DNA of 64,000 nt from Candidatus Loosdrechtia aerotolerans (GTDB lineage: Bacteria; Planctomycetota; Brocadiia; Brocadiales; Brocadiaceae). Under the pieces are notes generated by a model that saw only the letters and a program-made list of their open reading frames with translations, did no database searches and was not told the origin of the DNA. Shown here in pieces: positions 35,358-63,406 of this stretch; the first letter of the stretch is position 1; each line of letters opens with the position of its first letter. Location of the stretch: assembly GCA_021646405.1 (NCBI GenBank), contig SOER01000002.1, forward strand, positions 124,001 through 188,000, given 5' to 3'. The position numbers and the translations under genes are program-made.

Positions 35358-35714
35358 ATGTTTATAATACAAAACCAGCAACAACCGGAGAATAATGTTA
35401 CAGACGGGTACATTACCAAATACATCAATGTTACAAATAACAGGTTAATCAGGTTAATAATGTATTGATAATGCACCAGAACCATAATTTGCTACAAAAA
35501 CCACCGATTTTGTAACATAATATATATTATCAGACGTTATAAATTTTTATAACTTCATTTGTGGTGTTTGATATTTCTTTGTTTTAACGAAGAAATCTTA
35601 TTGACAACATAAATCATGTCTGATAGTATGTTTTTTTCCTGTTTCCGATTTTTTATGTATGAAATACTATACAATATTCTTTAGATGTACTCAATTTATG
35701 TAAGGAGGACAATC
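35358..35714. other. intergenic region upstream of the ladderane-candidate operon
   Basis: AT-rich, with no gene; carries a strong sigma-70 promoter at 35601-35629 and an 85-base leader before the ACP gene. Confidence 0.7.
35601..35629 (+). promoter_or_regulatory. canonical sigma-70 promoter of the ladderane-candidate operon
   Basis: A perfect TTGACA (35601-35606), 17 bases, then TAGTAT (35624-35629). Predicted transcription start near 35636. Confidence 0.75.
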
Positions 35715-35984
35715 TTGAACGCTGAAGAAATTGAAAAAGGTGTGACAAATATTGTAGCTGAGGTTACAGAGTTAGACGAGAAGGAGATATGGGATAAAAG
35801 AGATGCTAATTTCTTTAAAGACCTTGAAATTGACTCTCTCTTAGCCCTTGAAATTCTTGCGCTCATTGAAAAAAAGTTTAAGGTGCAAATACCTGAAGAG
35901 AAGCTAGTCGATATTACATCATTGAGCGCTACAATCGATTTGACAAAATCGGTCCTGGCGGAAAATGGAAAACTTACATCGTAA
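35715..35984 (+). CDS. acyl carrier protein
   Basis: 89 residues from a TTG at 35715, chosen because TAAGGAGG lies six bases upstream; the ATG at 35685 would place that ribosome site inside the gene. The phosphopantetheine serine is S41 in LEIDSLLALE. It is acidic and helical like other ACPs, but distinct from a typical housekeeping AcpP (DSLLALE instead of DSLDTVE). It probably carries the growing acyl chain for the dehydratase and ketosynthases that follow. First gene of the operon, which points to a dedicated rather than general carrier. Confidence 0.9.
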   Translation: MNAEEIEKGVTNIVAEVTELDEKEIWDKRDANFFKDLEIDSLLALEILALIEKKFKVQIPEEKLVDITSLSATIDLTKSVLAENGKLTS

Positions 35985-36063: not shown

Positions 36064-36513
36064 ATGATACCTTTTGAGGAAATTAGATCTCTTCTTCCAC
36101 AAAAATATCCTTTTCTATTTATCGATAAGGTACTTGAGATTGAGGAAGGAAAAAAGATTCTCTGTATAAAAAATATCTCCGGCAATGAGCCTGTCTTTGT
36201 CGGGCATTTCCCTGATTTCGCTATCATGCCTGGTGTTTTGATTATCGAAGCAATGGCCCAGGCCTCTATAATCCTGTTCAGGAAAAGCCTTCCTATTAAG
36301 AGCGGTAAGGATACGGTGTTTTTGTTAGCATCCGTTAGTAACGCGCGCTTTACAAAACCTGTCTTCCCTGGCGATCAACTCCATATCGAAATTACAGTAG
36401 AAAAAATTGTATCAAAAGGTGCCATTGTTCAGGCAAATGTAACGGTGAGTGGAAAAACTGCTGCCAAAGCTCATTTAACATTTGGAATTGCGGAAAAAAG
36501 CGAATTACTATAA
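36064..36513 (+). CDS. fabZ: 3-hydroxyacyl-ACP dehydratase, FabZ type
   Basis: 149 residues, a hot-dog-fold enzyme with the active-site pair H48 (in VGHFPDF) and E62 (in PGVLIIEAMAQ), the usual FabZ residues and spacing. It dehydrates 3-hydroxyacyl-ACP to trans-2-enoyl-ACP. It lies 79 bases after the ACP gene and nine bases before the ketosynthase. The residues after GHFP (DFAI) differ from the usual xxPI, which may reflect an unusual acyl chain. A second, different dehydratase lies at 45960 on the other strand. Confidence 0.9.
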   Translation: MIPFEEIRSLLPQKYPFLFIDKVLEIEEGKKILCIKNISGNEPVFVGHFPDFAIMPGVLIIEAMAQASIILFRKSLPIKSGKDTVFLLASVSNARFTKPVFPGDQLHIEITVEKIVSKGAIVQANVTVSGKTAAKAHLTFGIAEKSELL

Positions 36514-36522
36514 ATACATTCT

Positions 36523-37743
36523 ATGAATAAACGCGTTGTTATAACTGGCTTAGGAATGATTACCCCGATTGGATCCGGAAAGGATACCTTTTGGAATGCC
36601 CTTATTGCCGGGGTATCAGGTGTCGACAAGGTAACAGGTATTGACACCTCTGAATACAAGGTTCATAAAGGGTGCGAGGTTAAGGATTTTAATTATTCTG
36701 ATTATATAAAGAATGGTGTTCTAAAAAAGATTGGAAAAGGTTCTCAGTTTGGAATAGCCGCCGCAAAACTGGCATTAGATGATGGTAGGCTTGACCTAAA
36801 GGAAATTAATTTAGAGAGAATCGGTGTTTCTGTCGGAACAACTGCGGGTGAAATTCAGATACTGGAGAAGGTTAATTACATCCGGCACAAAGAAGGTGAA
36901 GATATGGTTGACCCCGAGCTCTTTTTGATGCACCCCTGTAACAATATCCCTTCGAATATTGCAATCGAATTTGGATTTAAAGGCCCTAACACAATTATTC
37001 CAACGGCTTGTGCTGCCGGCAACTATGCAATTGGGTATGCCTGTGATTTGATTAAATTTGGACGGGTGGATATGATGGTCGCCGGCGGTTCAGACCCCTT
37101 TTCAAAAGTAGCGTATACGGGATTTGCGAGGCTTGGCGCTATAGCCCCGGAAATATGCCAACCTTTCGATAAAAACCGAAAAGGTATGATGGTTGGTGAG
37201 GGTGCAGGTATCCTTCTTCTGGAATCTCTTGATCATGCAAAAAAGAGAAATGCCCATATTTATGCTGAAATCATAGGCTATGGCCTTAGTTGTGATGCCT
37301 ACCATATAACCATTCCGCATCCAAATGGTGAAGGTGTTATCTCTGCAATGAAAAAGGCCCTCCAGAGTGCAGATTTGAAACCCCAGGATGTCCAATATAT
37401 TAGTGCGCATGGAACGGGAACACCCGCCAATGATAAAGCGGAGACGATTTCCATTAAAAAGGTGTTTGGAGATAAACCCGGTCATTTGGCGATTAGCTCG
37501 ATAAAATCGATGATTGGTCATACCATGGGAGCTGCAAGTGCAATAGAAGCAATTACTTGTGCGCTCGTTGTTCAAAACGACATCATTCCTCCGACCATCA
37601 ACTATGTAACGCCGGATCCAGAGTGTGATCTGGATTATGTACCGAACGTCATGAGAAGGCAGCAGGTAACAATTGCGCTGAATAATGCTCATGCATTCGG
37701 CGGTAATAATAGCTGTCTGGTTGTTAAAAAATTTAGAGGTTAG
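36523..37743 (+). CDS. fabF: 3-oxoacyl-ACP synthase II-type ketosynthase (active partner)
   Basis: 406 residues. Full catalytic set: C163 in [12 protein letters not shown]296 in [15 protein letters not shown]328 and H333 in [12 protein letters not shown]. It condenses malonyl-ACP with acyl-ACP. It ends two bases before a second ketosynthase that has lost the same residues, an arrangement found in type II polyketide and aryl polyene systems. Cytoplasmic. The name fabF refers to the family; a housekeeping role is unlikely given the context. Confidence 0.9.
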
Positions 37744-37745
37744 TA

Positions 37746-38987
37746 ATGGGAAAAAAAAGGATCGTTATTACAGGTGTTTCTGTTATCTCACCTATTGGAA
37801 CAGGTAAAGATGTTTACTGGAAGAATTTAACCGATGGTGTATCTGGTATAAAACCAATCACCCTGTTTGATGTAAGTAAATTTAAAAGCAAACAGGCTGG
37901 TGAGATCTCCGATTTTGATGCCAAGATTTATCTTGGACCAAAAGGAATTCGCCATATCGATAGAACATCCCTGCTTGTATCTTCAGCAACAATCCTTGCT
38001 ATCAAAGATGCTAATCTCGAAAATAATACGGTATATGGCGGGGATGATTTAGGCATAGTTGTTGGTTCTACATACGGAAGTATAGACAGTATTAGTTCTT
38101 TTGATTTCCAATCGTTGCGTGAAGGTCCTAATTATGTAAATCCTATGGATTTCCCAAATACTGTCTTAAATGCACCGGCAAGCCGTGCATCTATTTTTTG
38201 TAAAGCTACAGGATTGAATACCACAATTTCAAATGGTGTAACAAGCAGTATCGATGCGATTATTTATGCGTCTGATTTTCTGAGAATGGGCCGTGTAAAG
38301 GCTGTAATCGCAGGAGGTGTGCATGGGTTAACCCATGATATATTCTGGGGATCGCATAGTGCCCAGATTTTATCAGGCAGTATAGAGGGAACTCCGGAAA
38401 TCTGTGCCCCCTTTGATAAAAGGCGTAACGGATTGGTCATTGGTGAAGCGGCAACGCTCGTTATCCTTGAAACGCTGGAAGACGCCCGGAAAAGGAATGC
38501 CCATATTTATGCAGAGGTAACAGGGTATGGAACGGCTTTTGAACCTAAAATGGCTGTAAGCGAAGATTACCAAATACATGGTAACAAAAGGGCCACCTTA
38601 GAGGCGATTAAAGATGCTAACTTAACGTTGCATGATATTTCTTATATATCTGCCAATGCTTATTCCGGAAAATATGGCGATGCAATGGAAACCCGGGTCA
38701 TCAAAGAGGTATTTGGAATGAGAGCGAATCTTATTCCTGTAACAGCTATTAAGTCTATGACAGGAGAATGCTTTGATGCCTCGGGAGCACTGCAGACGGT
38801 AGCGGCCGTAATGTCTCTTAATACCCACATAATTCCGCCTACGATTAATTATAAAGAGCGTGATGAAGAATGTGATCTCAATTATGTAACAGAAAAAACT
38901 ACATTACCGGTAAAAAATGTATTGATAAATTCCTTTTCACGGCTAGGAAATAATTCTGCCCTGATTGTCTCCAGATACAAGCAGTAA
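37746..38987 (+). CDS. ketosynthase-like protein lacking all catalytic residues (chain-length-factor-like)
   Basis: 413 residues, clearly homologous to the gene before it over its whole length (shared blocks [24 protein letters not shown]). When aligned on the GRV anchor, the catalytic Cys is V165, the first His is N304 (YISANAYSG) and the second is E341 (IKSMTGECFDASG). It therefore cannot catalyse condensation by the usual mechanism. By analogy with KS-beta/CLF subunits it probably forms a heterodimer with the active ketosynthase and shapes chain length or the product cavity. Codon use and length show no sign of decay, so loss of activity looks selected. Confidence 0.85.
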   Translation: MGKKRIVITGVSVISPIGTGKDVYWKNLTDGVSGIKPITLFDVSKFKSKQAGEISDFDAKIYLGPKGIRHIDRTSLLVSSATILAIKDANLENNTVYGGDDLGIVVGSTYGSIDSISSFDFQSLREGPNYVNPMDFPNTVLNAPASRASIFCKATGLNTTISNGVTSSIDAIIYASDFLRMGRVKAVIAGGVHGLTHDIFWGSHSAQILSGSIEGTPEICAPFDKRRNGLVIGEAATLVILETLEDARKRNAHIYAEVTGYGTAFEPKMAVSEDYQIHGNKRATLEAIKDANLTLHDISYISANAYSGKYGDAMETRVIKEVFGMRANLIPVTAIKSMTGECFDASGALQTVAAVMSLNTHIIPPTINYKERDEECDLNYVTEKTTLPVKNVLINSFSRLGNNSALIVSRYKQ

Positions 38988-38990
38988 TAC

Positions 38991-40454
38991 ATGTTTCATT
39001 CCAATACACCTGTTCGGTCTACCCAAAAAGATCAGTTATACCCTTTTTATGATGCAATTGTGATCGGTGCCGGTATAGCAGGTCTTATTTGTGGTACATT
39101 TCTTGCCAAAACCGGCAAAAAAGTACTTATTGTAGAGCAGCATTCTATTCCGGGTGGTTATTGCACTTCTTTTAAAAGAAAAGGCTTTAACTTTGATGCG
39201 GCAGTTCACCATATCGGAGGTTGTGGAAGATGGAGTGTGGTTGGTCGCTGTTTGAGAATACTGGGGATAGAAATGGATTTTTCCTGTCTCGACCCAATGG
39301 ACAATCTTATATTTCCCGATTTTAGCATTGAGATTCCCGCTGATCTGGAAAGATATATTTTGGGCTTGCAAGACCGATATCCACCAGAAAAAGATCGGAT
39401 TAAGAGTTTTTTTCAGGATTACACAAAACTTTACCGCGCCACTTTTCATAACGAAAAAAGTCAAATTCTTGAAACATATAAAAACATAACCTATGGCGAT
39501 ATGCTGAATAGGTATTTTGAGAACGATGAACTCAAAACGATACTCTCCGGTCAATGGGGCTACATAGGCCTCCCCCCTTCACAAGCGTCTGCAATTGCTA
39601 TGTGTCAAATGATGGTTAACTATCTCAAGGACGGTGCCTATTTCCCTTCCGGTGGTACGCAAGGGTTTGCCAATGCAATTTTTAAGAAATTTATTGATTT
39701 TGGCGGACATGTTATGTTATCATCCGAGGCGATAAAAATACACCTCAATGGCACTGCTGTAAACGGTATTACCTTGCGCGGAGGCAAAGAAATATCCTCG
39801 GGTTTGTTAGTTTCAAACATTGATGCACGAAAGACGTTCCTGGAACTCCTGGAGGGTGAAATGGATCCATCCTTCCTTAAAAAGATTCACGGGATGAGGA
39901 GGAGTTGTTCCTTCTTTCTTTTATACTTGGGCTTAGGAGGAGATGCAGATGTAAGCAATTTAAAGAGAGGGTTTTATCATCAGGCAACAAATTCGAATTC
40001 CCTAGATAGGGAATGGATGTATATCTCTGTTCCGACAAGGATATGTCCAGACCTTGCTCCGTTGAACAAAAAAATAATCTCTGTAGTCGTTTCAATAAAC
40101 GAAGAGACATACGAAGACGTTACTAATTGGGATTCTTTTAAAGAACATATGACACGCGTTATCCTAAACCGGCTGGAAGAATATGTTCCTAATATTCAAA
40201 AGTATATTGAAGTAAAAGAAGCGGCTACCCCAAAGACGCTGGAACGTTACACATCAAATACCAAAGGTGCCGCTTATGGCTGGGCGGTTACCGTAGACCA
40301 AATGTGGGACAACAGACTACCACATGAGTCACCAATTAAGAATTTGTATTTAGCTGGACATTGGACAAGGCCAGGCCCTGGAATTGCCGCTGTGGTCTCT
40401 TCGGGTTGGAGTGTTGCTAATTTAATTATAGAGAATTGGAGGCAAACAATATGA
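38991..40454 (+). CDS. phytoene-desaturase/CrtISO-like FAD oxidoreductase
   Basis: 487 residues. The Rossmann FAD motif AIVIGAGIAGLICGTFLAKT runs from about residue 23, with E at the end of the second strand (VEQHSIPGG), and the C-terminal FAD segment is NLYLAGHWTRPGPGIAAVVS. This fits the CrtI/CrtISO family, which desaturates or isomerises polyenes. In an operon with ACP and ketosynthases and no carotenoid synthase, the substrate is more likely an acyl chain. Homologues in anammox bacteria have been proposed to act on ladderane precursors; activity has not been shown here. It lies three bases after the KS-like gene. Confidence 0.88.
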   Translation: MFHSNTPVRSTQKDQLYPFYDAIVIGAGIAGLICGTFLAKTGKKVLIVEQHSIPGGYCTSFKRKGFNFDAAVHHIGGCGRWSVVGRCLRILGIEMDFSCLDPMDNLIFPDFSIEIPADLERYILGLQDRYPPEKDRIKSFFQDYTKLYRATFHNEKSQILETYKNITYGDMLNRYFENDELKTILSGQWGYIGLPPSQASAIAMCQMMVNYLKDGAYFPSGGTQGFANAIFKKFIDFGGHVMLSSEAIKIHLNGTAVNGITLRGGKEISSGLLVSNIDARKTFLELLEGEMDPSFLKKIHGMRRSCSFFLLYLGLGGDADVSNLKRGFYHQATNSNSLDREWMYISVPTRICPDLAPLNKKIISVVVSINEETYEDVTNWDSFKEHMTRVILNRLEEYVPNIQKYIEVKEAATPKTLERYTSNTKGAAYGWAVTVDQMWDNRLPHESPIKNLYLAGHWTRPGPGIAAVVSSGWSVANLIIENWRQTI

Positions 40455-41911
40455 GTAAAAAAATGATGTTGATTAATCCACATAAACCAGGCAGATGTGG
40501 TGAAGAGAGTATTACGGTAATTGTCCAAATGCCTTTGAATCTTGCTTACATTGCTGCCCTTACACAGGGTGATTGGGAATTTGATGTAATTGACGAGAAT
40601 ATCGAACTGGCAATAGACGATAATGACGAAATCACCTTTGCACCCGTTGATCTTGTATGTATTACGGCAGTTACCTACCAATCACCAAGGGCTTATAAAA
40701 TTGCTGAGGCCTGCAAGAAAAAAGGTATGACGGTTATTATGGGTGGCATCCATGCCTCTGTTATGCCTGAAGAGGCCGAGAACTATGTTGATGCAGTTTT
40801 TGTCGGTGAAGCAGAAGAATTATGGCCACAAGTAATAAAAGATTTTGAAGAGGGAAAATTAAAAAAGGTTTACCATGGGGGCTTACCTTCACTTAGTCTT
40901 ATGAAAAAGGTGCACCCAAATAGAGAACTCATGAAAAGAAAGTACAATTATAAGTTCTCTTCTATCGTTACCACAAAAGGATGCCCTAATTATTGTGATT
41001 TCTGTAGCGTACCTACATTCCAGGGGAGAAAATTCAGGGAGAGGCCTTACGAAGATGTGCTCGATGAAATGATGGCGACCGATTATAAAGGTTTGATGTT
41101 GGCAGAAGATAATTTTTACGGGCATGGTAAAAAGTCGAACGAAAGGGCACGGGACCTTTTTAAAGGAATGGTTGAGCGCGGCATACGCAAAGACTGGTTG
41201 GGATTCACGGCCTTAAACATCTCTCAAGATCCTGAAACCCTTGATTATATGGCCAAGAGTGGTAATTTCGGTATGCTCATTGGTATTGAGTCAACCAACG
41301 ATGCTGTTTTACAAAAGATGAATAAACGGGTGAACCTTAAACTCGGTACTGATAGTTACTACGATTGCATACAGAAAATTCATGATGCAGGGCTTGTTGT
41401 TTGGGGATCAGTAGTATTTGGGGCCGATGGGGATGATAAAGATTCTTTTAAGAGAATGACCGAATTTATATTGGAAAATAATATCGATATCCTGACCTTT
41501 GGTATTAATTGCCCCTTTCCAAAAACACAACTGTATGCAAGATTAGACTCAGAAAAAAGGATTTTCCGGAAGAATTATCCTGAAGACTGGCAATACTATG
41601 ATACAGCAAATGTTGTTCACCGGTTTGTCGATATGTCACTGGAAGATTTTATTCATGGTATGCAGTATGTTTATGATCATCTATATGCTGGTGATAATTT
41701 GAGAACACGCTTCAGAAATTCTATCAGGACAACGAAGAACCCGAGAAACTCCATGTTCGCATTTCGTGTTGGTTCTGATTGGAAACAGGTGTTCGAACAG
41801 GTACTGCAGGGATTAAAGGAACTGTATGATTCAGGTGATTATTACAAAGATTGGTATACTTCAAACGCTGTAACAGTAAAAAACCCGATTATGGAAACTG
41901 CTACAACGTAA
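40451..41911 (+). CDS. B12-binding-domain radical SAM enzyme
   Basis: 486 residues from the ATG at 40451, which overlaps the stop of the previous gene (ATGA) and follows GGAGG by eight bases. The N-terminal 140 residues form a cobalamin-binding-type domain, without the DxHxxG base-on motif. C178-x3-C182-x2-C185 (CPNYCDFC) binds the 4Fe-4S cluster. Members include BchE-like cyclases and methylases acting on unactivated carbons, a chemistry suited to forming carbon-carbon bonds in cyclobutane rings. Anammox homologues are long-standing ladderane candidates. The C-terminal 120 residues resemble those of hopanoid- and cyclase-type members. Confidence 0.88.
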   Translation: MSKKMMLINPHKPGRCGEESITVIVQMPLNLAYIAALTQGDWEFDVIDENIELAIDDNDEITFAPVDLVCITAVTYQSPRAYKIAEACKKKGMTVIMGGIHASVMPEEAENYVDAVFVGEAEELWPQVIKDFEEGKLKKVYHGGLPSLSLMKKVHPNRELMKRKYNYKFSSIVTTKGCPNYCDFCSVPTFQGRKFRERPYEDVLDEMMATDYKGLMLAEDNFYGHGKKSNERARDLFKGMVERGIRKDWLGFTALNISQDPETLDYMAKSGNFGMLIGIESTNDAVLQKMNKRVNLKLGTDSYYDCIQKIHDAGLVVWGSVVFGADGDDKDSFKRMTEFILENNIDILTFGINCPFPKTQLYARLDSEKRIFRKNYPEDWQYYDTANVVHRFVDMSLEDFIHGMQYVYDHLYAGDNLRTRFRNSIRTTKNPRNSMFAFRVGSDWKQVFEQVLQGLKELYDSGDYYKDWYTSNAVTVKNPIMETATT

Positions 41912-42600: not shown

Positions 42601-44241
42601 ATGAAAGCATCGGATCTACTCGTCAAATGTTTAGAAAATGAAGGTGTTAAATACATCTTTGGAATTCCTGGAGAAGAAAATCTGGATATACTGAATTCCC
42701 TCTTAGATTCTCACATACAGTTTATCACTACCCGCCATGAACAAGGTGCGGCCTTTATGGCTAACGTTTACGGCCGGCTAACGGGAAAGGCAGGTGTTTG
42801 TTTATCAACACTCGGTCCCGGAGCAACCAACCTGGTAACGGGTATTGCTGATGCAAATCTTGACAGGGCACCTCTTGTTGCCATTACCGGCCAGACAAGC
42901 CTCGATCGTATGCATAAAGAATCGCATCAGTACATGAACACCGTTGATGTATTCAGGCCCGTCACGAAATGGAATACCCTGGTTCATACACCTGAGATTG
43001 TTCCGGAGGTTGTCCGAAAGGCATTTAAGATTGCTCAAATGGAAAAGCCAGGTACAACGCATATCGATATTCCCGAGGATGTTGCAAAAGCAGACATACT
43101 CGGTCAACCAATCCCAAGAAAAGAAGAGTTCCATGTACCTCACCCTACCATAGAGACATTAAAGATTGCAGCCAGAATGATTTCTGATGCCCGTTATCCA
43201 ATTATCCTTGCCGGAAACGGAGTATTGAGGGCACGGGCGGCTGAAGCATTAACGAGTTTCGCTATAAAACTCGATATTCCTGTTGCGACAACATTCATGG
43301 GGAAAGGAGCTATTCCTGATGATTGTCCTCTTTCTTTACTTGCAATAGGTCTGCAGGATAATGACCATATCTCCTGCGGTTTTGATCAGGCAGATTTGAT
43401 AATATCCGTGGGGTATGATCTTGTGGAATATCATCCTCATAATTGGAACCCGTTTAAGACAAAAAGAGTTCTGCACATCGATACCACTCCAAGCGAAGTG
43501 GATGCATATTACAATGTCGATCTAGAAGTGATCGGGAAAATCACTGAGACATTGAACCACCTGTCACGGATGACTCGGATAAAAGAGCCGAGACACATCA
43601 TAAGTCTTTTACGAAATTCCGTTATGCAGGAATGTAAGACAATGAGTGAAGATAGATCCTTTCCTGTAAAACCACAGAAGATAGTATGTGATATCCGCCA
43701 GGTCCTGGGTCCCGATGACATCCTCATTAGTGATGTTGGTGCTCATAAGTTGTGGGTTTCACGCATATATCCGGTATATAAACCCAATACATGCATCATC
43801 TCCAATGGTTTTGCTTCCATGGGTATTGCTCTGCCAGGTGCTATTGCAGCGAAACTCGCTTATCCGGAACGTCAGGTTATTGCTATAACCGGTGATGGCG
43901 GGTTTCTTATGAACTCACAGGAATTAGAGACCGCCCTGCGGCTTGGTATATCCTTTGTATTATTAATTGTTAACGATAACAGTTACGGGGTAATTAAAGC
44001 AAAACAGATAAACACCTTTGGGCGAGCTGCATTTGTTGATTTTACCAACCCGGACTTTGTTAAATATGCTGAAAGTTTTGGTGCAAAAGGCTATTATGTA
44101 AAGTCCGGCAGTGAATTAAAAACAATCCTCTACGATGCACTCAAACAGCAATGCCCTACTGTTATTGATTGTCCGGTCGAGTATAAAGAGAACATTATTC
44201 TTACAAAAAAAATTAGTCAACATATTCCGTATGCAAAATGA
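42601..44241 (+). CDS. acetolactate-synthase-like thiamine diphosphate enzyme
   Basis: 546 residues with the three ThDP-enzyme domains: N-terminal PYR domain with catalytic Glu in RHEQGAAFMA (about residue 49), central domain, and C-terminal PP domain with GDGGFLMNSQELETA and NDNSYGV (the GDG-x-N motif). It is the catalytic-subunit size of acetolactate synthase; no regulatory subunit gene follows, which fits the AlsS-type or a related decarboxylase/ligase. It overlaps the phosphorylase gene by ATGA. Whether it serves branched-chain amino acid synthesis is uncertain. Confidence 0.8.
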   Translation: MKASDLLVKCLENEGVKYIFGIPGEENLDILNSLLDSHIQFITTRHEQGAAFMANVYGRLTGKAGVCLSTLGPGATNLVTGIADANLDRAPLVAITGQTSLDRMHKESHQYMNTVDVFRPVTKWNTLVHTPEIVPEVVRKAFKIAQMEKPGTTHIDIPEDVAKADILGQPIPRKEEFHVPHPTIETLKIAARMISDARYPIILAGNGVLRARAAEALTSFAIKLDIPVATTFMGKGAIPDDCPLSLLAIGLQDNDHISCGFDQADLIISVGYDLVEYHPHNWNPFKTKRVLHIDTTPSEVDAYYNVDLEVIGKITETLNHLSRMTRIKEPRHIISLLRNSVMQECKTMSEDRSFPVKPQKIVCDIRQVLGPDDILISDVGAHKLWVSRIYPVYKPNTCIISNGFASMGIALPGAIAAKLAYPERQVIAITGDGGFLMNSQELETALRLGISFVLLIVNDNSYGVIKAKQINTFGRAAFVDFTNPDFVKYAESFGAKGYYVKSGSELKTILYDALKQQCPTVIDCPVEYKENIILTKKISQHIPYAK

Positions 44242-45935
44242 ATAACGAAGCAAAAATTGCCTATTTTTCCATGGAGATTGGCATCTCCTATGATATTCCG
44301 ACATATAGCGGGGGACTCGGCGTCCTTGCCGGAGATACGATAAAATCATGCGCGGATCTTAAAATACCCCTTGTTGCCGTTACCCTTATTTCAAAAAAAG
44401 GTTATTTCTGTCAGGATATAGATAACGACGGCAGGCAGATTGAGTCCCCTATTGACTGGGACCCCTCCAGCGTTATGATGCGTTTATCAAAAAAAGTTAT
44501 GATTCATATTGAGGGACGTAAGGTTTATCTTCAGGCATGGTGCTATAAAGTAAAAAGCGTTACAGGTGGTGAAATAGATGTATTATATCTTGATACAGAC
44601 GTTGAAGAGAATTCCAGAGAAGACCGGGAGATAACACATGTTCTCTACGGTGGTGACGACAGTTACCGGCTCAAACAGGAAATGGTACTTGGTATTGGTG
44701 GCGTACGAATGCTCCGCGCCCTTGGATATCATATAAAAAAATACCATATGAATGAAGGGCATGCCAGTCTGTTAACCCTGGAACTTCTCTTAAGGCACAA
44801 GCGAGACGTTGAAAGTGTATGGCATGAACAATGGGTCTGGGATATTGATACCGTAAGAGACTTATGTGTTTTTACAACCCATACCCCTATTGAGGCAGGC
44901 CATGATCGGTTCCCTTATGAATTAGTAAGAAAAATTCTTGGCGATATTATTCCCCTGGATGAATTGAAGAGGCTTGGAGGCGAACAACACCTCAATATGA
45001 CCCTATTGGCATTAAATCTGAGCAGGTATGTTAACGGTGTAGCAAAAAAACATGGCGAGGTATCAAAAAATCTTTTTCCCGGTTATGAGATCTATGCTAT
45101 TACCAATGGAGTACATTCATTTACCTGGACTTGTTCAAGCTTTAAACAGTTGTATGATAAATATATCCCCAGCTGGGCAAATGAACCGGAGTTATTTGTC
45201 AGGGCAGAAACTATCCCTGATTCTGAAATATGGGAGGCGCATCTTTCTGCAAAAAAGGACCTGTTCGATTATGTTAACGTAAGCACAGGTATAGAGTTAA
45301 ATCCTGATATTCTTACTATTGGATTTGCAAGGAGATTTACCTCGTACAAACGGGCAGATTTAGTATTTTCAAACATAGAACGGCTCTTGTCGGTCTGCAA
45401 AAAGGGAAAATTGCAAATTATCTATGCAGGAAAGGCCCATCCTAAAGATAAACCCGGTAAAGAGATCATAAGAAAAATTCATGAGTTCTCGAAAATGTAT
45501 AATCACGAGATTACAGTCATATTCTTAAAAGACTATAATGTTGCGATGGCCTTAAAGTTAATCTCAGGGGTCGATATCTGGCTGAATACGCCGTTACGCC
45601 CGCGTGAAGCATCTGGCACAAGTGGCATGAAAGCAGCTCATAACGGTGTGATCAACTTCAGCATACTGGATGGATGGTGGATTGAGGGACATATTGAAGG
45701 AGTTACCGGTTGGTCCATCGGGCCGAAACCATTGGAATCCTCACTTGCAACAATTAATGACATATCGGATGCTGAGGATCTCTATACCAAGTTAGAAAAT
45801 ATTATTATCCCTATGTATTATCACGATAAAACTCAATGGATAAAGATCATGAAAAACTCTATTGGAAAGGTTGCCTATTATTTTAATAGCCACCGCATGA
45901 TGCGCCGATATGTAACAGAAGCTTATCTTGATTAA
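44238..45935 (+). CDS. alpha-glucan phosphorylase (GT35, short form)
   Basis: 565 residues. IAYFSMEIGISYDIPTYSGG opens the family-specific domain, KYHMNEGHASLLTLE follows, and the C-terminal GTSGMKAAHNGVINFSILDG includes the lysine region for pyridoxal phosphate. It releases glucose-1-phosphate from glycogen or maltodextrin. It is shorter than classical GlgP (about 800 residues), like the second copy at 61574. Translationally coupled to the ThDP enzyme. Glucose-1-phosphate is also the substrate of the RfbF enzymes in this window. Confidence 0.88.
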   Translation: MNNEAKIAYFSMEIGISYDIPTYSGGLGVLAGDTIKSCADLKIPLVAVTLISKKGYFCQDIDNDGRQIESPIDWDPSSVMMRLSKKVMIHIEGRKVYLQAWCYKVKSVTGGEIDVLYLDTDVEENSREDREITHVLYGGDDSYRLKQEMVLGIGGVRMLRALGYHIKKYHMNEGHASLLTLELLLRHKRDVESVWHEQWVWDIDTVRDLCVFTTHTPIEAGHDRFPYELVRKILGDIIPLDELKRLGGEQHLNMTLLALNLSRYVNGVAKKHGEVSKNLFPGYEIYAITNGVHSFTWTCSSFKQLYDKYIPSWANEPELFVRAETIPDSEIWEAHLSAKKDLFDYVNVSTGIELNPDILTIGFARRFTSYKRADLVFSNIERLLSVCKKGKLQIIYAGKAHPKDKPGKEIIRKIHEFSKMYNHEITVIFLKDYNVAMALKLISGVDIWLNTPLRPREASGTSGMKAAHNGVINFSILDGWWIEGHIEGVTGWSIGPKPLESSLATINDISDAEDLYTKLENIIIPMYYHDKTQWIKIMKNSIGKVAYYFNSHRMMRRYVTEAYLD

Positions 45936-45959: not shown

Positions 45960-46433
45960 CTAAACGACCATACCAATAATAACCCCTTCAAATACTAACT
46001 TTTCATCCACAATTCCCTGGGCATCAAAAATGGCCCTTCGTGAGCGCAGCTCTCTATTTTTAGCAATCAAAATAAGTTTATCACCAGGTACAACCTTTCC
46101 GCGGAACTTAACATTGTTAATACCGCCAAAACCCAGGAACCGATCGTCCTTTGTCACCTGCTTATAATAATAGGTGCACAACTGGGCGGCAGCCTCAAGC
46201 ATCAATACACCAGGCATGAGGGGACGACCGGGAATATGCCCTCTTACCCAGAACTCACTATCTGAGATATCCTTATACCCTACAATGATACCCTGTTCAA
46301 TATCGAATTTTAAGATACCGCTCAACTGTTCCATTTCGTATCGATGAGGTATAACAGTACGAATATCGTCTATATTCTTTACTGGCTTATTCATATCTAT
46401 AGTACTTAAATCTATTAATATCTCTTGTGGCAT
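45960..46433 (-). CDS. FabZ-like 3-hydroxyacyl-ACP dehydratase (second copy)
   Basis: 157 residues with RGHIPGRPLMPGVLMLEAAAQ, the FabZ/FabA active-site segment (His and Glu kept), preceded by VIPHRYEMEQL. It is distinct in sequence from the fabZ at 36064. It converges on the phosphorylase gene, 24 bases away. It probably dehydrates hydroxyacyl-ACP or shapes a specialised acyl chain; a link to the lipid operon is plausible but not shown. Confidence 0.85.
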   Translation of the reverse strand: MPQEILIDLSTIDMNKPVKNIDDIRTVIPHRYEMEQLSGILKFDIEQGIIVGYKDISDSEFWVRGHIPGRPLMPGVLMLEAAAQLCTYYYKQVTKDDRFLGFGGINNVKFRGKVVPGDKLILIAKNRELRSRRAIFDAQGIVDEKLVFEGVIIGMVV

Positions 46434-61573: not shown

Positions 61574-63406
61574 ATGATAAAAGACCCTGTTTGTGGAATG
61601 ATAGCAAGAGAAGAGCTGCAGTACGAGTACAAAGGCCAGTTATTTTATTTCTGTTCAGAGTTCTGTAGAAACGAATTCCAAAAATCTCCGGAGAATTATA
61701 GCGGCCAACGGCGTATCACCATTACTGCAGGAGAAAAAAAGGAACGAAAGATTGCCTATTTCTCAATGGAAATAGGTATCGATCCACATATTCCTACGTA
61801 CAGCGGAGGATTGGGAATTTTGGCAGGAGATACGATAAAATCTTGTGCTGATTTGAAAGTACCAATGGTAGCAGTTACTCTTTTATACACCCATGGGTAT
61901 TTTTTTCAGAAATTAGATGTACAAGGAAATCAGCAAGAATTCCCTGTTCAATGGAATCCCAAAGATTTCTTAAAACCTTTGCCAAATAAAGTTCTTGTAC
62001 AAATAGAAAAGAGAACAGTAATTATTCAGGCCTGGCAATTGGATATTTTTGGCATAACGGGATATCCTGTGCCTGTCATATTTTTAACTACAAACCTCAA
62101 AGAAAACAGCGAATATGATAGAAGCCTGAATGACTCCCTATATGGAGGAGACCAAACATACAGATTAGCCCAGGAGATTGTTCTTGGAATTGGTGGAGTA
62201 CGTATGCTCCGTGATTTGGGTTATACAGAAATAGAAAAATATCATATGAATGAAGGTCATGCGAGTTTATTAACGTTGGAATTATTACAAGAGCAGAAAA
62301 CAAAGAAAGAATTATTATGGGATTATGAGACAGTAAGAAACCTCTGCGTATTCACCACTCATACACCCGTACCAGCGGGACACGATCAATTTCCGTATGA
62401 TTTAGTAAGCCGTGTTTTGGGAGAATTTGTGCCTTTTGACATTCTGAAAATGCTCGCCGGCGAAGAAAAGTTAAATATGACCTTGCTTGCCCTGAATTTA
62501 AGTACATATATCAATGGTGTGGCAAAAAGGCATGGTGATGTTTCAAAATCGATGTTTCCCGGCTATCCCATCGATTCCATAACCAACGGTGTGCACTCAA
62601 ATACCTGGATTTGTGATAGTTTTAAGAACCTTTACGACAAGTACATGCCGGGGTGGAGAAATGACCCCTTTAGTTTAAGATATGCTTTGAGCATTCCGGA
62701 GGAAGAGATATGGCAGGCGCATACTGAGGCAAAGAGGAAACTTATTGATTATGTAAACGAAGAGACAAACGCAGGCCTTCATTACGATACCTTTACCATT
62801 GGCTTTGCAAGGCGTGCAACGCTCTACAAGAGGGCAGATTTGATATTCTCAGATATCAACAGGCTGATCCATATTGCTAACACTTCAGGCAACATCCAAT
62901 TTATCTTTGCTGGTAAAGCCCATCCACAAGACCGGCCCGGAAAGGAGGTGATTAAAAAGATTTTTTCGGGTATCGACCAATTAAGAGATCAAATAAAAAT
63001 ACTCTATCTGGAAAATTATGATATAGGGATGGGAAAACTCCTTACTTCCGGGGTAGACCTCTGGTTAAATACCCCCTTACGGCCAAATGAGGCATCAGGT
63101 ACTTCCGGTATGAAGGCGGCACATAACGGTGTACCGAGTTTTAGTGTTCTGGACGGCTGGTGGATTGAGGGGCACATTAAGGGTGTTACCGGTTGGTCTA
63201 TTGGACCGGAAACATTTGACAGTGGATATGACAGTAAAAAAGATGCTGAAGAATTATATAGGAAACTAGAGGAGGTCATAATACCCATGTTTTACCAGAA
63301 CCGAAGAAAATGGCTTACTATTATGCAGCACTCTATTGCTATGAATGCCTCATTTTTTAATACTCACAGGATGGTCCAGCAGTATGTTTTAAATTCATAT
63401 TTTTAA
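61574..63406 (+). CDS. alpha-glucan phosphorylase fused to an N-terminal YHS metal-binding domain
   Basis: 610 residues. The first 45 form a YHS domain (KDPVCGM, then FYFCSEFCRNEFQKSPENY, with C7, C27, C31), normally found in copper ATPases and metal-trafficking proteins. From about residue 59 a full short-form GT35 phosphorylase follows (IAYFSMEIGID, KYHMNEGHASLLTLE, GTSGMKAAHNGVPSFS), paralogous to the protein at 44238. The linker RRITITAGEKKERK joins them in one frame with no frameshift. It would release glucose-1-phosphate from glucan; the fused domain could sense or bind a metal. Cytoplasmic. No strong ribosome site is seen before the ATG. Confidence 0.88.
   Translation: MIKDPVCGMIAREELQYEYKGQLFYFCSEFCRNEFQKSPENYSGQRRITITAGEKKERKIAYFSMEIGIDPHIPTYSGGLGILAGDTIKSCADLKVPMVAVTLLYTHGYFFQKLDVQGNQQEFPVQWNPKDFLKPLPNKVLVQIEKRTVIIQAWQLDIFGITGYPVPVIFLTTNLKENSEYDRSLNDSLYGGDQTYRLAQEIVLGIGGVRMLRDLGYTEIEKYHMNEGHASLLTLELLQEQKTKKELLWDYETVRNLCVFTTHTPVPAGHDQFPYDLVSRVLGEFVPFDILKMLAGEEKLNMTLLALNLSTYINGVAKRHGDVSKSMFPGYPIDSITNGVHSNTWICDSFKNLYDKYMPGWRNDPFSLRYALSIPEEEIWQAHTEAKRKLIDYVNEETNAGLHYDTFTIGFARRATLYKRADLIFSDINRLIHIANTSGNIQFIFAGKAHPQDRPGKEVIKKIFSGIDQLRDQIKILYLENYDIGMGKLLTSGVDLWLNTPLRPNEASGTSGMKAAHNGVPSFSVLDGWWIEGHIKGVTGWSIGPETFDSGYDSKKDAEELYRKLEEVIIPMFYQNRRKWLTIMQHSIAMNASFFNTHRMVQQYVLNSYF

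What the first reader, a model, noticed from the sequence alone, without database searches (positions are those of the whole stretch)
37746..38987. Second ketosynthase has lost Cys, His and His: likely a chain-length-factor partner
Aligned on shared anchors with the active ketosynthase, the catalytic positions are V165, N304 and E341, while the fold and length are kept. In type II polyketide systems such a dead partner sets chain length. Here the Cys is Val rather than the Gln common in CLFs, so it may be a separate lineage. A heterodimer would explain how an unusual long polyene chain is built before ring closure.
Basis: partly seen in the sequence, partly recalled or inferred. Interest (0 to 1): 0.75.

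Follow-up and report, generated by a model that had tools for sequence, protein, structure and literature searches.

The report
Inactive ketosynthase partner for ladderane lipids
In ammonium-oxidising (anammox) bacteria, this gene encodes a ketosynthase-shaped protein without catalytic residues that very probably pairs with the active enzyme next to it to build the chains of their ladder-shaped membrane lipids; the residue loss was published in 2009 and both proteins' close relatives already lie together in one solved structure.

Summary
In detail: the 413-aa product of 37746-38987 keeps the FabF fold but has V165, N304 and E341 where FabF has Cys, His and His. It is not strain-specific. All 50 anammox orthologues lack all three, while 54 of 54 neighbouring KS1 proteins keep them. 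The gene lies in an ACP-FabZ-KS-CLF-CrtI-B12/radical-SAM operon conserved across Brocadiales. It is the orthologue of Kuste3606, whose identical substitutions were tabulated in 2009. PDB entries 9s5h and 9s5i contain close homologues of this protein and of the 36523 product together; 9s5i also contains the operon's ACP. So the partner reading is supported.

New here: KS and CLF trees mirror each other; a second KS-CLF pair (Kuste2804/2805 type) occurs in nearly all Brocadiales; related KS-CLF clusters occur in a few Acidobacteria; KS1 carries features of the polyene ("highly reducing") type II PKS group, including a 6-residue loop deletion shared with Iga11 and ApeO.

"Val instead of Gln, so a separate lineage" is not supported as argued: that site varies, and a common clade with actinobacterial CLFs is not rejected (p-AU 0.45). 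Chain-length control is inferred, not shown.

The parts
37746..38987 (+). CLF1: ketosynthase-fold protein without catalytic Cys/His/His (orthologue of Kuste3606)
   Evidence: PMC2649909 Table 2
38238..38240 (+). codon 165, Val in place of the nucleophilic Cys163 of FabF
38655..38657 (+). codon 304, Asn in place of His303 of FabF
38766..38768 (+). codon 341, Glu in place of His340 of FabF
38052..38201 (+). CLF1 residues 103-152: most conserved block (68% invariant in 50 orthologues, 25% elsewhere); corresponds to the stretch that in other KS-CLF pairs lines the dimer interface and tunnel (that last point from general knowledge)
38073..38075 (+). codon 110, aromatic (Tyr, Phe in some families) at the FabF Ile108 pocket position
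36523..37743 (+). KS1: active partner ketosynthase with Cys163/His296/His333 (orthologue of Kuste3605); ends 2 nt before the CLF1 start codon, with AGAGG just upstream of it
36064..36513 (+). FabZ-type dehydratase (Kuste3604 type)
35685..35984 (+). dedicated acyl carrier protein (Kuste3603 type); close homologue is chain E of 9s5i
38991..40454 (+). CrtI/phytoene-desaturase-like FAD oxidoreductase (Kuste3607 type)
40436..41911 (+). B12-binding radical SAM protein (Kuste3608 type)

Best explanation
The protein is the non-catalytic, chain-length-factor-type subunit (CLF1) of an obligate KS-CLF heterodimer with the product of 36523-37743 (KS1), working on the operon's own ACP in anammox ladderane lipid synthesis. 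KS1 does all the condensation chemistry (Cys163, His296, His333). CLF1 supplies the other half of the interface, so that only one active site works and the growing chain lies in an asymmetric pocket at the KS-CLF boundary, capped by CLF1 residues such as Tyr/Phe110. With FabZ and a reductase encoded elsewhere this would give an unsaturated chain, which the CrtI-like and B12/radical-SAM enzymes then modify. Shown here: residue loss, conservation, invariable pairing, congruent trees. Shown by deposited structures: close homologues of KS and CLF in one entry, and of the ACP with them. Inferred: the heterodimer as the functional unit in this strain, pocket capping, chain-length control, the chain's nature and the step served.
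For: PDB 9s5h/9s5i hold a close homologue of CLF1 (chain C, E 2.5e-232) and of KS1 (chain B, E 2.4e-245) in the same two entries, eight chains of each in all; 9s5i also holds the ACP. All catalytic residues lost in 50/50 CLF1 and kept in 54/54 KS1. The order ACP-FabZ-KS1-CLF1-CrtI-rSAM is found across the Brocadiales families wherever the contig is long enough. CLF1 in 59 of 62 Brocadiales genomes (a few as contig-end fragments), none in 13 other genomes of the class, and only in Brocadiales in a phylum sample of 343; in the three genomes without CLF1 no KS1 was found either. KS tree ((KS1, acidoKS), KS2) mirrors CLF tree ((CLF1, acidoCLF), CLF2), also with catalytic columns removed (the CLF1+acidoCLF node itself is weak, 86/41 and 63). 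KS1 shares with Iga11 (6kxd, the ishigamide KS-CLF) the TACAAGNY motif, the Glu of GTTxGE and a 6-residue loop deletion also found in ApeO and absent from FabF and KS-alpha. The 103-152 block is the most conserved part of CLF1.
Against: The biological assembly of 9s5h/9s5i was not seen, only the chain lists, and no paper on them was found. No product is known; expression of the Kuenenia gene set, this cluster included, in E. coli is described in PMC4790861 (that ladderanes were not obtained is from general knowledge of that paper). Iga11 Asp113, said to promote release of the beta-ketoacyl-ACP in a polyene type II PKS, is Ala or Gly in KS1. KS1 still scores higher against FabF than against Iga11 over its whole length. 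The CLF1 monomer model was of modest confidence (pLDDT 65) and gave nothing on the interface.
Confidence: 0.82

Rival explanations
1. Cyclisation or conformation factor: CLF1 pairs with KS1, but its pocket mainly folds or orients the bound chain for later ring closure rather than setting length, as proposed for AmcG, the 'cyclization factor' partner of AmcF in cispentacin synthesis.
For: A KS-fold partner with a proposed non-length role exists (PMC10698177). The operon contains a CrtI-like and a B12/radical-SAM enzyme. The CLF1 interface block is unusually conserved. KS1 matches the AmcF model only below its cut-off.
Against: AmcG is described as lacking some secondary structures of CLFs and having little similarity to them; CLF1 is full length. 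Acidobacterial relatives without an obvious radical-SAM gene in the stretch read also have the pair.
Confidence: 0.12
2. A separate enzyme with altered chemistry that recruits a ladderane moiety made outside fatty acid synthesis into the pathway (Rattray et al. 2009, pathway b).
For: Proposed in PMC2649909 because the active site cannot work as FabF.
Against: The would-be catalytic sites vary among orthologues (V/E/T/I; N/C; E/D), while the interface block and K336/Q350 are fixed. Close homologues of CLF1 and KS1 are in the same PDB entries. Such a variable site is unusual for a catalyst.
Confidence: 0.05
3. A degenerating FabF copy that lost its residues only in this strain.
For: None found beyond the loss itself.
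Against: The loss is shared by 50/50 orthologues and by the sister groups CLF2 and acidobacterial CLF; the CLF clade is supported at 100/98 and contains no active KS; strong purifying selection.
Confidence: 0.01

Closest known systems
Kuste3605/Kuste3606 of Kuenenia stuttgartiensis (PMC2649909, PMC4790861) and PDB 9s5h/9s5i chains B and C
   Same: Same operon order (kuste3603-3608), same Val/Asn/Glu substitutions, lysine and glutamine kept; 9s5h/9s5i homologues are very close to KS1 and CLF1 over full length.
   Different: The 2009 paper read the dead paralogue as a possible recruiter of ladderane moieties, not as a CLF. No paper for 9s5h/9s5i was found. The 9s5h chain C sequence is not identical to any orthologue fetched here (best 93.9%).
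Polyene (highly reducing) type II PKS KS-CLF: Iga11-Iga12 (6kxd), ApeO-ApeC (6qsp, 7f28)
   Same: Active KS plus dead partner with ACP, dehydratase and a reductase; shared loop deletion and TACAAGNY and GTTxGE motifs in the KS; a Streptomyces KS-CLF didomain (L060) branches next to both anammox clades (long branches).
   Different: Iga11 Asp113 is Ala/Gly in KS1; the partner is full length, unlike ApeC; neighbours are CrtI-like and B12/radical SAM enzymes; the setting is membrane lipid rather than secondary metabolism.
Aromatic type II PKS KS-alpha/CLF (actinorhodin, 1tqy)
   Same: KS paired with an inactive KS-fold partner encoded next to it.
   Different: Actinobacterial CLFs have Q/E, D and R at the three sites and form their own supported group; KS-alpha lacks the loop deletion. 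A common CLF clade is not rejected (p-AU 0.45).
AmcF-AmcG (KS-CYF) of cispentacin synthesis
   Same: KS similar to the polyene group with a non-catalytic partner in a ring-forming pathway.
   Different: AmcG is reduced and CLF-unlike; KS1 and CLF1 score far below the AmcF cut-off.

Membership tests
KS-CLF heterodimer (type II PKS-like) | partner has KS fold and length but no catalytic Cys/His/His | tested here: met
   50/50 orthologues
KS-CLF heterodimer (type II PKS-like) | partner gene adjacent to and always found with an active KS | tested here: met
KS-CLF heterodimer (type II PKS-like) | physical KS-CLF complex | tested here: inconclusive
   close homologues of both chains in the same PDB entries, with ACP in 9s5i; assembly not inspected, proteins of this strain not tested
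KS-CLF heterodimer (type II PKS-like) | partner determines chain length | not testable with these tools
   needs reconstitution and mutants
Polyene (highly reducing) type II PKS | KS in the Iga11/ApeO group: loop deletion, GTTx[10 protein letters not shown] | tested here: met
   loop length 8 in KS1, KS2, acidobacterial KS, Iga11, ApeO against 14 in FabF and KS-alpha; Glu shared with Iga11; tree placement with ApeO only 88/90
Polyene (highly reducing) type II PKS | Asp at Iga11 position 113 | tested here: not met
   Ala or Gly in KS1; whether the group as a whole needs this Asp was not established, and PMC8358021 reports no similar residue in ApeO-ApeC
Polyene (highly reducing) type II PKS | conjugated polyene product | not testable with these tools
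   product unknown
Actinobacterial aromatic-type CLF | Gln at the Cys site | tested here: not met
   V/E/T/I in anammox CLF1; Q in one of six acidobacterial relatives and Q or E in Streptomyces CLFs, so a weak criterion
Actinobacterial aromatic-type CLF | branches with actinobacterial CLFs | tested here: inconclusive
   free tree separates them; joint clade not rejected, p-AU 0.45
FabF (active, strain-specific loss) | groups inside active FabF | tested here: not met
   CLF clade 100/98 without active members

The most novel reading that the evidence does not exclude
Anammox bacteria build the ladderane precursor with two dedicated polyene-type KS-CLF synthases (KS1-CLF1 and KS2-CLF2, each next to its own B12/radical-SAM enzyme) rather than by desaturating a finished fatty acid, so that a type II PKS-like system makes a main membrane lipid, and the CLF pockets present the chain in the shape needed for ring closure.
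Probability: 0.25. Interest if true: 0.85.

Novelty: new member of a known kind. Interest (0 to 1): 0.45.

Why it matters
How anammox bacteria make ladderanes is a long-standing open question. Reading Kuste3606-type proteins as CLF partners, instead of as recruiters of an outside ladderane moiety, tells experimenters to purify KS1 with CLF1 and ACP. It also flags a second pair of the same kind and points to acidobacterial clusters with the same core whose product might be easier to study.

Tried and rejected
1) Structure prediction of CLF1 from 12 orthologues gave pLDDT 65, pTM 0.72, with the interface region (109-166, 195-232) below 50. Foldseek returned FabF structures and the ishigamide KS-CLF; its PDB copy ends 2026-04-08 and 9s5h was not among the 50 rows shown, so its title and date were not obtained.
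2) A text search for 9S5H found no paper on it; searches for ladderane with FabF, chain length factor or ketosynthase found none naming Kuste3606 a CLF.
3) Hydrazine synthase alpha (PF18582) as an anammox marker was not clean: missing in many incomplete genomes, and found in 11-16 copies in two genomes outside the order.
5) The first E. coli CFT073 stretch missed the aryl polyene genes and was not used.
6) An independent origin of the CLFs could be neither shown nor excluded (p-AU 0.45 for one CLF clade, 0.17 for duplication inside the KS lineage).
7) Val165 as a lineage mark was rejected because the site varies.

Full report
OBSERVATION. The ORF at 37746-38987 (+) gives an uninterrupted 413-aa protein that matches both ketoacyl-synthase domains of Pfam over their length. 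Against E. coli FabF, the nucleophile Cys163 is V165, His303 is N304 and His340 is E341; the lysine is kept as K336. The partner gene 36523-37743 (KS1) has Cys163, His296 and His333. It ends 2 nt before the CLF1 start codon, with AGAGG just before that start, so the two are probably translated in a coupled way (inference).

NOT A LOCAL ACCIDENT. Orthologues at 55% identity or more occur in 59 of the 62 Brocadiales genomes searched (a few as contig-end fragments), and in none of 13 other genomes of the class. In a sample of 343 genomes of the phylum, matches occur only in this order. In the three Brocadiales genomes without CLF1, KS1 was not found either; in one of them a contig edge cuts the operon at its radical-SAM gene. 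In 50 full CLF1 sequences the three sites are V36/E8/T5/I1, N38/C12 and E44/D6, while K336 and Q350 never vary; in 54 KS1 sequences Cys, His and His never vary. dN is 0.075 against a near-saturated dS of 1.9 relative to the L055 relative, lower than the dN of the CrtI neighbour (0.16). Conservation peaks in residues 103-152 (68% invariant, 25% elsewhere). In other KS-CLF pairs this stretch lines the interface and tunnel (general knowledge, not tested here).

OPERON AND ORGANISM. The gene order ACP-FabZ-KS1-CLF1-CrtI-B12/radical SAM holds in Kuenenia, Brocadia, Jettenia, Scalindua, Anammoxibacter and unnamed Brocadiales, as far as contigs reach. This is the kuste3603-3608 cluster, called the second most highly expressed candidate gene cluster in PMC4790861. 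The window's own genome has a hydrazine synthase alpha domain. Rattray et al. 2009 (PMC2649909) list for Kuste3606 Val163, Asn298, Glu333 and Gln342, the same substitutions, and proposed that it may recruit a ladderane moiety.

SOLVED RELATIVES. Entries 9s5h and 9s5i contain chain C, a close relative of CLF1 (E 2.5e-232), and chain B, the same for KS1 (E 2.4e-245), eight chains of each over the two entries; 9s5i also has a close relative of the window's ACP. This is strong evidence that the pair forms a complex with its ACP, but I saw only chain lists, not the assembly, and found no paper.

TREE. In a 72-protein tree (IQ-TREE, LG+C20 PMSF) all anammox and acidobacterial CLFs form a clade with 100/98 support and no active member; KS1, KS2 and the acidobacterial KS form another at 100/99. 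The inner order is the same in both: the acidobacterial protein is nearest to pair 1, with pair 2 outside (100/95 for KS; weaker, 86/41, for CLF). A quick tree without the catalytic columns gives the same groups. So the pair travels as a unit, and the loss predates the split of pair 1, pair 2 and the acidobacterial pair. Whether these CLFs share an origin with actinobacterial CLFs is open: a joint clade is not rejected (p-AU 0.45), and neither is duplication inside the KS lineage (p-AU 0.17).

WHICH KIND OF KS-CLF. KS1, KS2 and the acidobacterial KS have a loop of 8 residues before PFDK, as have Iga11 and ApeO, where FabF and KS-alpha have 14; these KSs share the Glu of GTTxGE with Iga11, and KS1 shares TACAAGNY with it. 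This puts KS1 nearest to the polyene type II PKS group. Iga11 Asp113, described in PMC8358021 as promoting release of the beta-ketoacyl-ACP for reduction, is Ala or Gly in KS1. CLF1 has Tyr or Phe at the FabF Ile108 position, CLF2 has Leu, the KSs Ala, Gly or Ser. That CLF1 caps the KS1 pocket with this aromatic residue is my inference.

Val in place of Gln does not mark a lineage: most anammox CLF1 have Val, others Glu, Thr or Ile; acidobacterial relatives Leu, Gly or Gln; Streptomyces CLFs Gln or Glu. The tree, not this residue, is the evidence for a distinct clade.

MECHANISM. Most likely KS1 condenses malonyl units on the operon's ACP, FabZ dehydrates, a reductase from elsewhere reduces, and CLF1 is the silent half of the dimer that shapes the pocket; CrtI-like and B12/radical-SAM proteins act later. 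The step CLF1 serves, chain length and product are not shown by anything here.

VERDICT. A real and conserved KS-CLF partner, ordinary in kind but in an unusual setting, known since 2009 as a non-canonical FabF. What is added is the CLF assignment with tree, pairing and motif evidence, the second pair as the same kind, and the acidobacterial relatives.

Noticed in passing
L039 (own genome contig C24) 3499-8207: Second KS-CLF pair: AcpS, B12/radical SAM, active KS2 and dead CLF2 (Phe/Asn/Glu at the catalytic sites), the Kuste2802-2805 arrangement; found in nearly all Brocadiales genomes and the same in kind as pair 1.
   Followed up: partly
L116 5286-14243; L118, L149-L154: A few Acidobacteria MAGs carry ACP, KS and a dead CLF nearest to anammox pair 1; in L116 followed by HMG-CoA reductase, FabG, a CrtI-like oxidoreductase and an acyltransferase. 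Found in 7 of 200 genomes sampled from that class.
   Followed up: partly
L042 4014-8090 and 8005-16725 (own genome contig C6): Two very long ORFs (1358 and 2906 aa) with ketosynthase domains, apparently a multidomain polyketide-type synthase in this anammox genome.
   Followed up: no
window 44238-45935 and 61574-63406: Two alpha-glucan-phosphorylase-like proteins in one window; the second has an N-terminal extension reading like a short metal-binding (YHS-type) domain.
   Followed up: no
window 45960-46433 (-): A second, divergent FabZ/ApeI-like dehydratase on the opposite strand 4 kb downstream of the operon.
   Followed up: no
genomes G064 and G065 (same class, other families): 11 and 16 matches to the hydrazine synthase alpha Pfam model in large proteins outside the anammox order, so the model alone is not an anammox marker.
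   Followed up: no
G040 and G058: Two rather complete Brocadiales genomes (94% and 93%) lack the whole KS1-CLF1 pair but keep pair 2; binning gap or real loss was not settled.
   Followed up: partly
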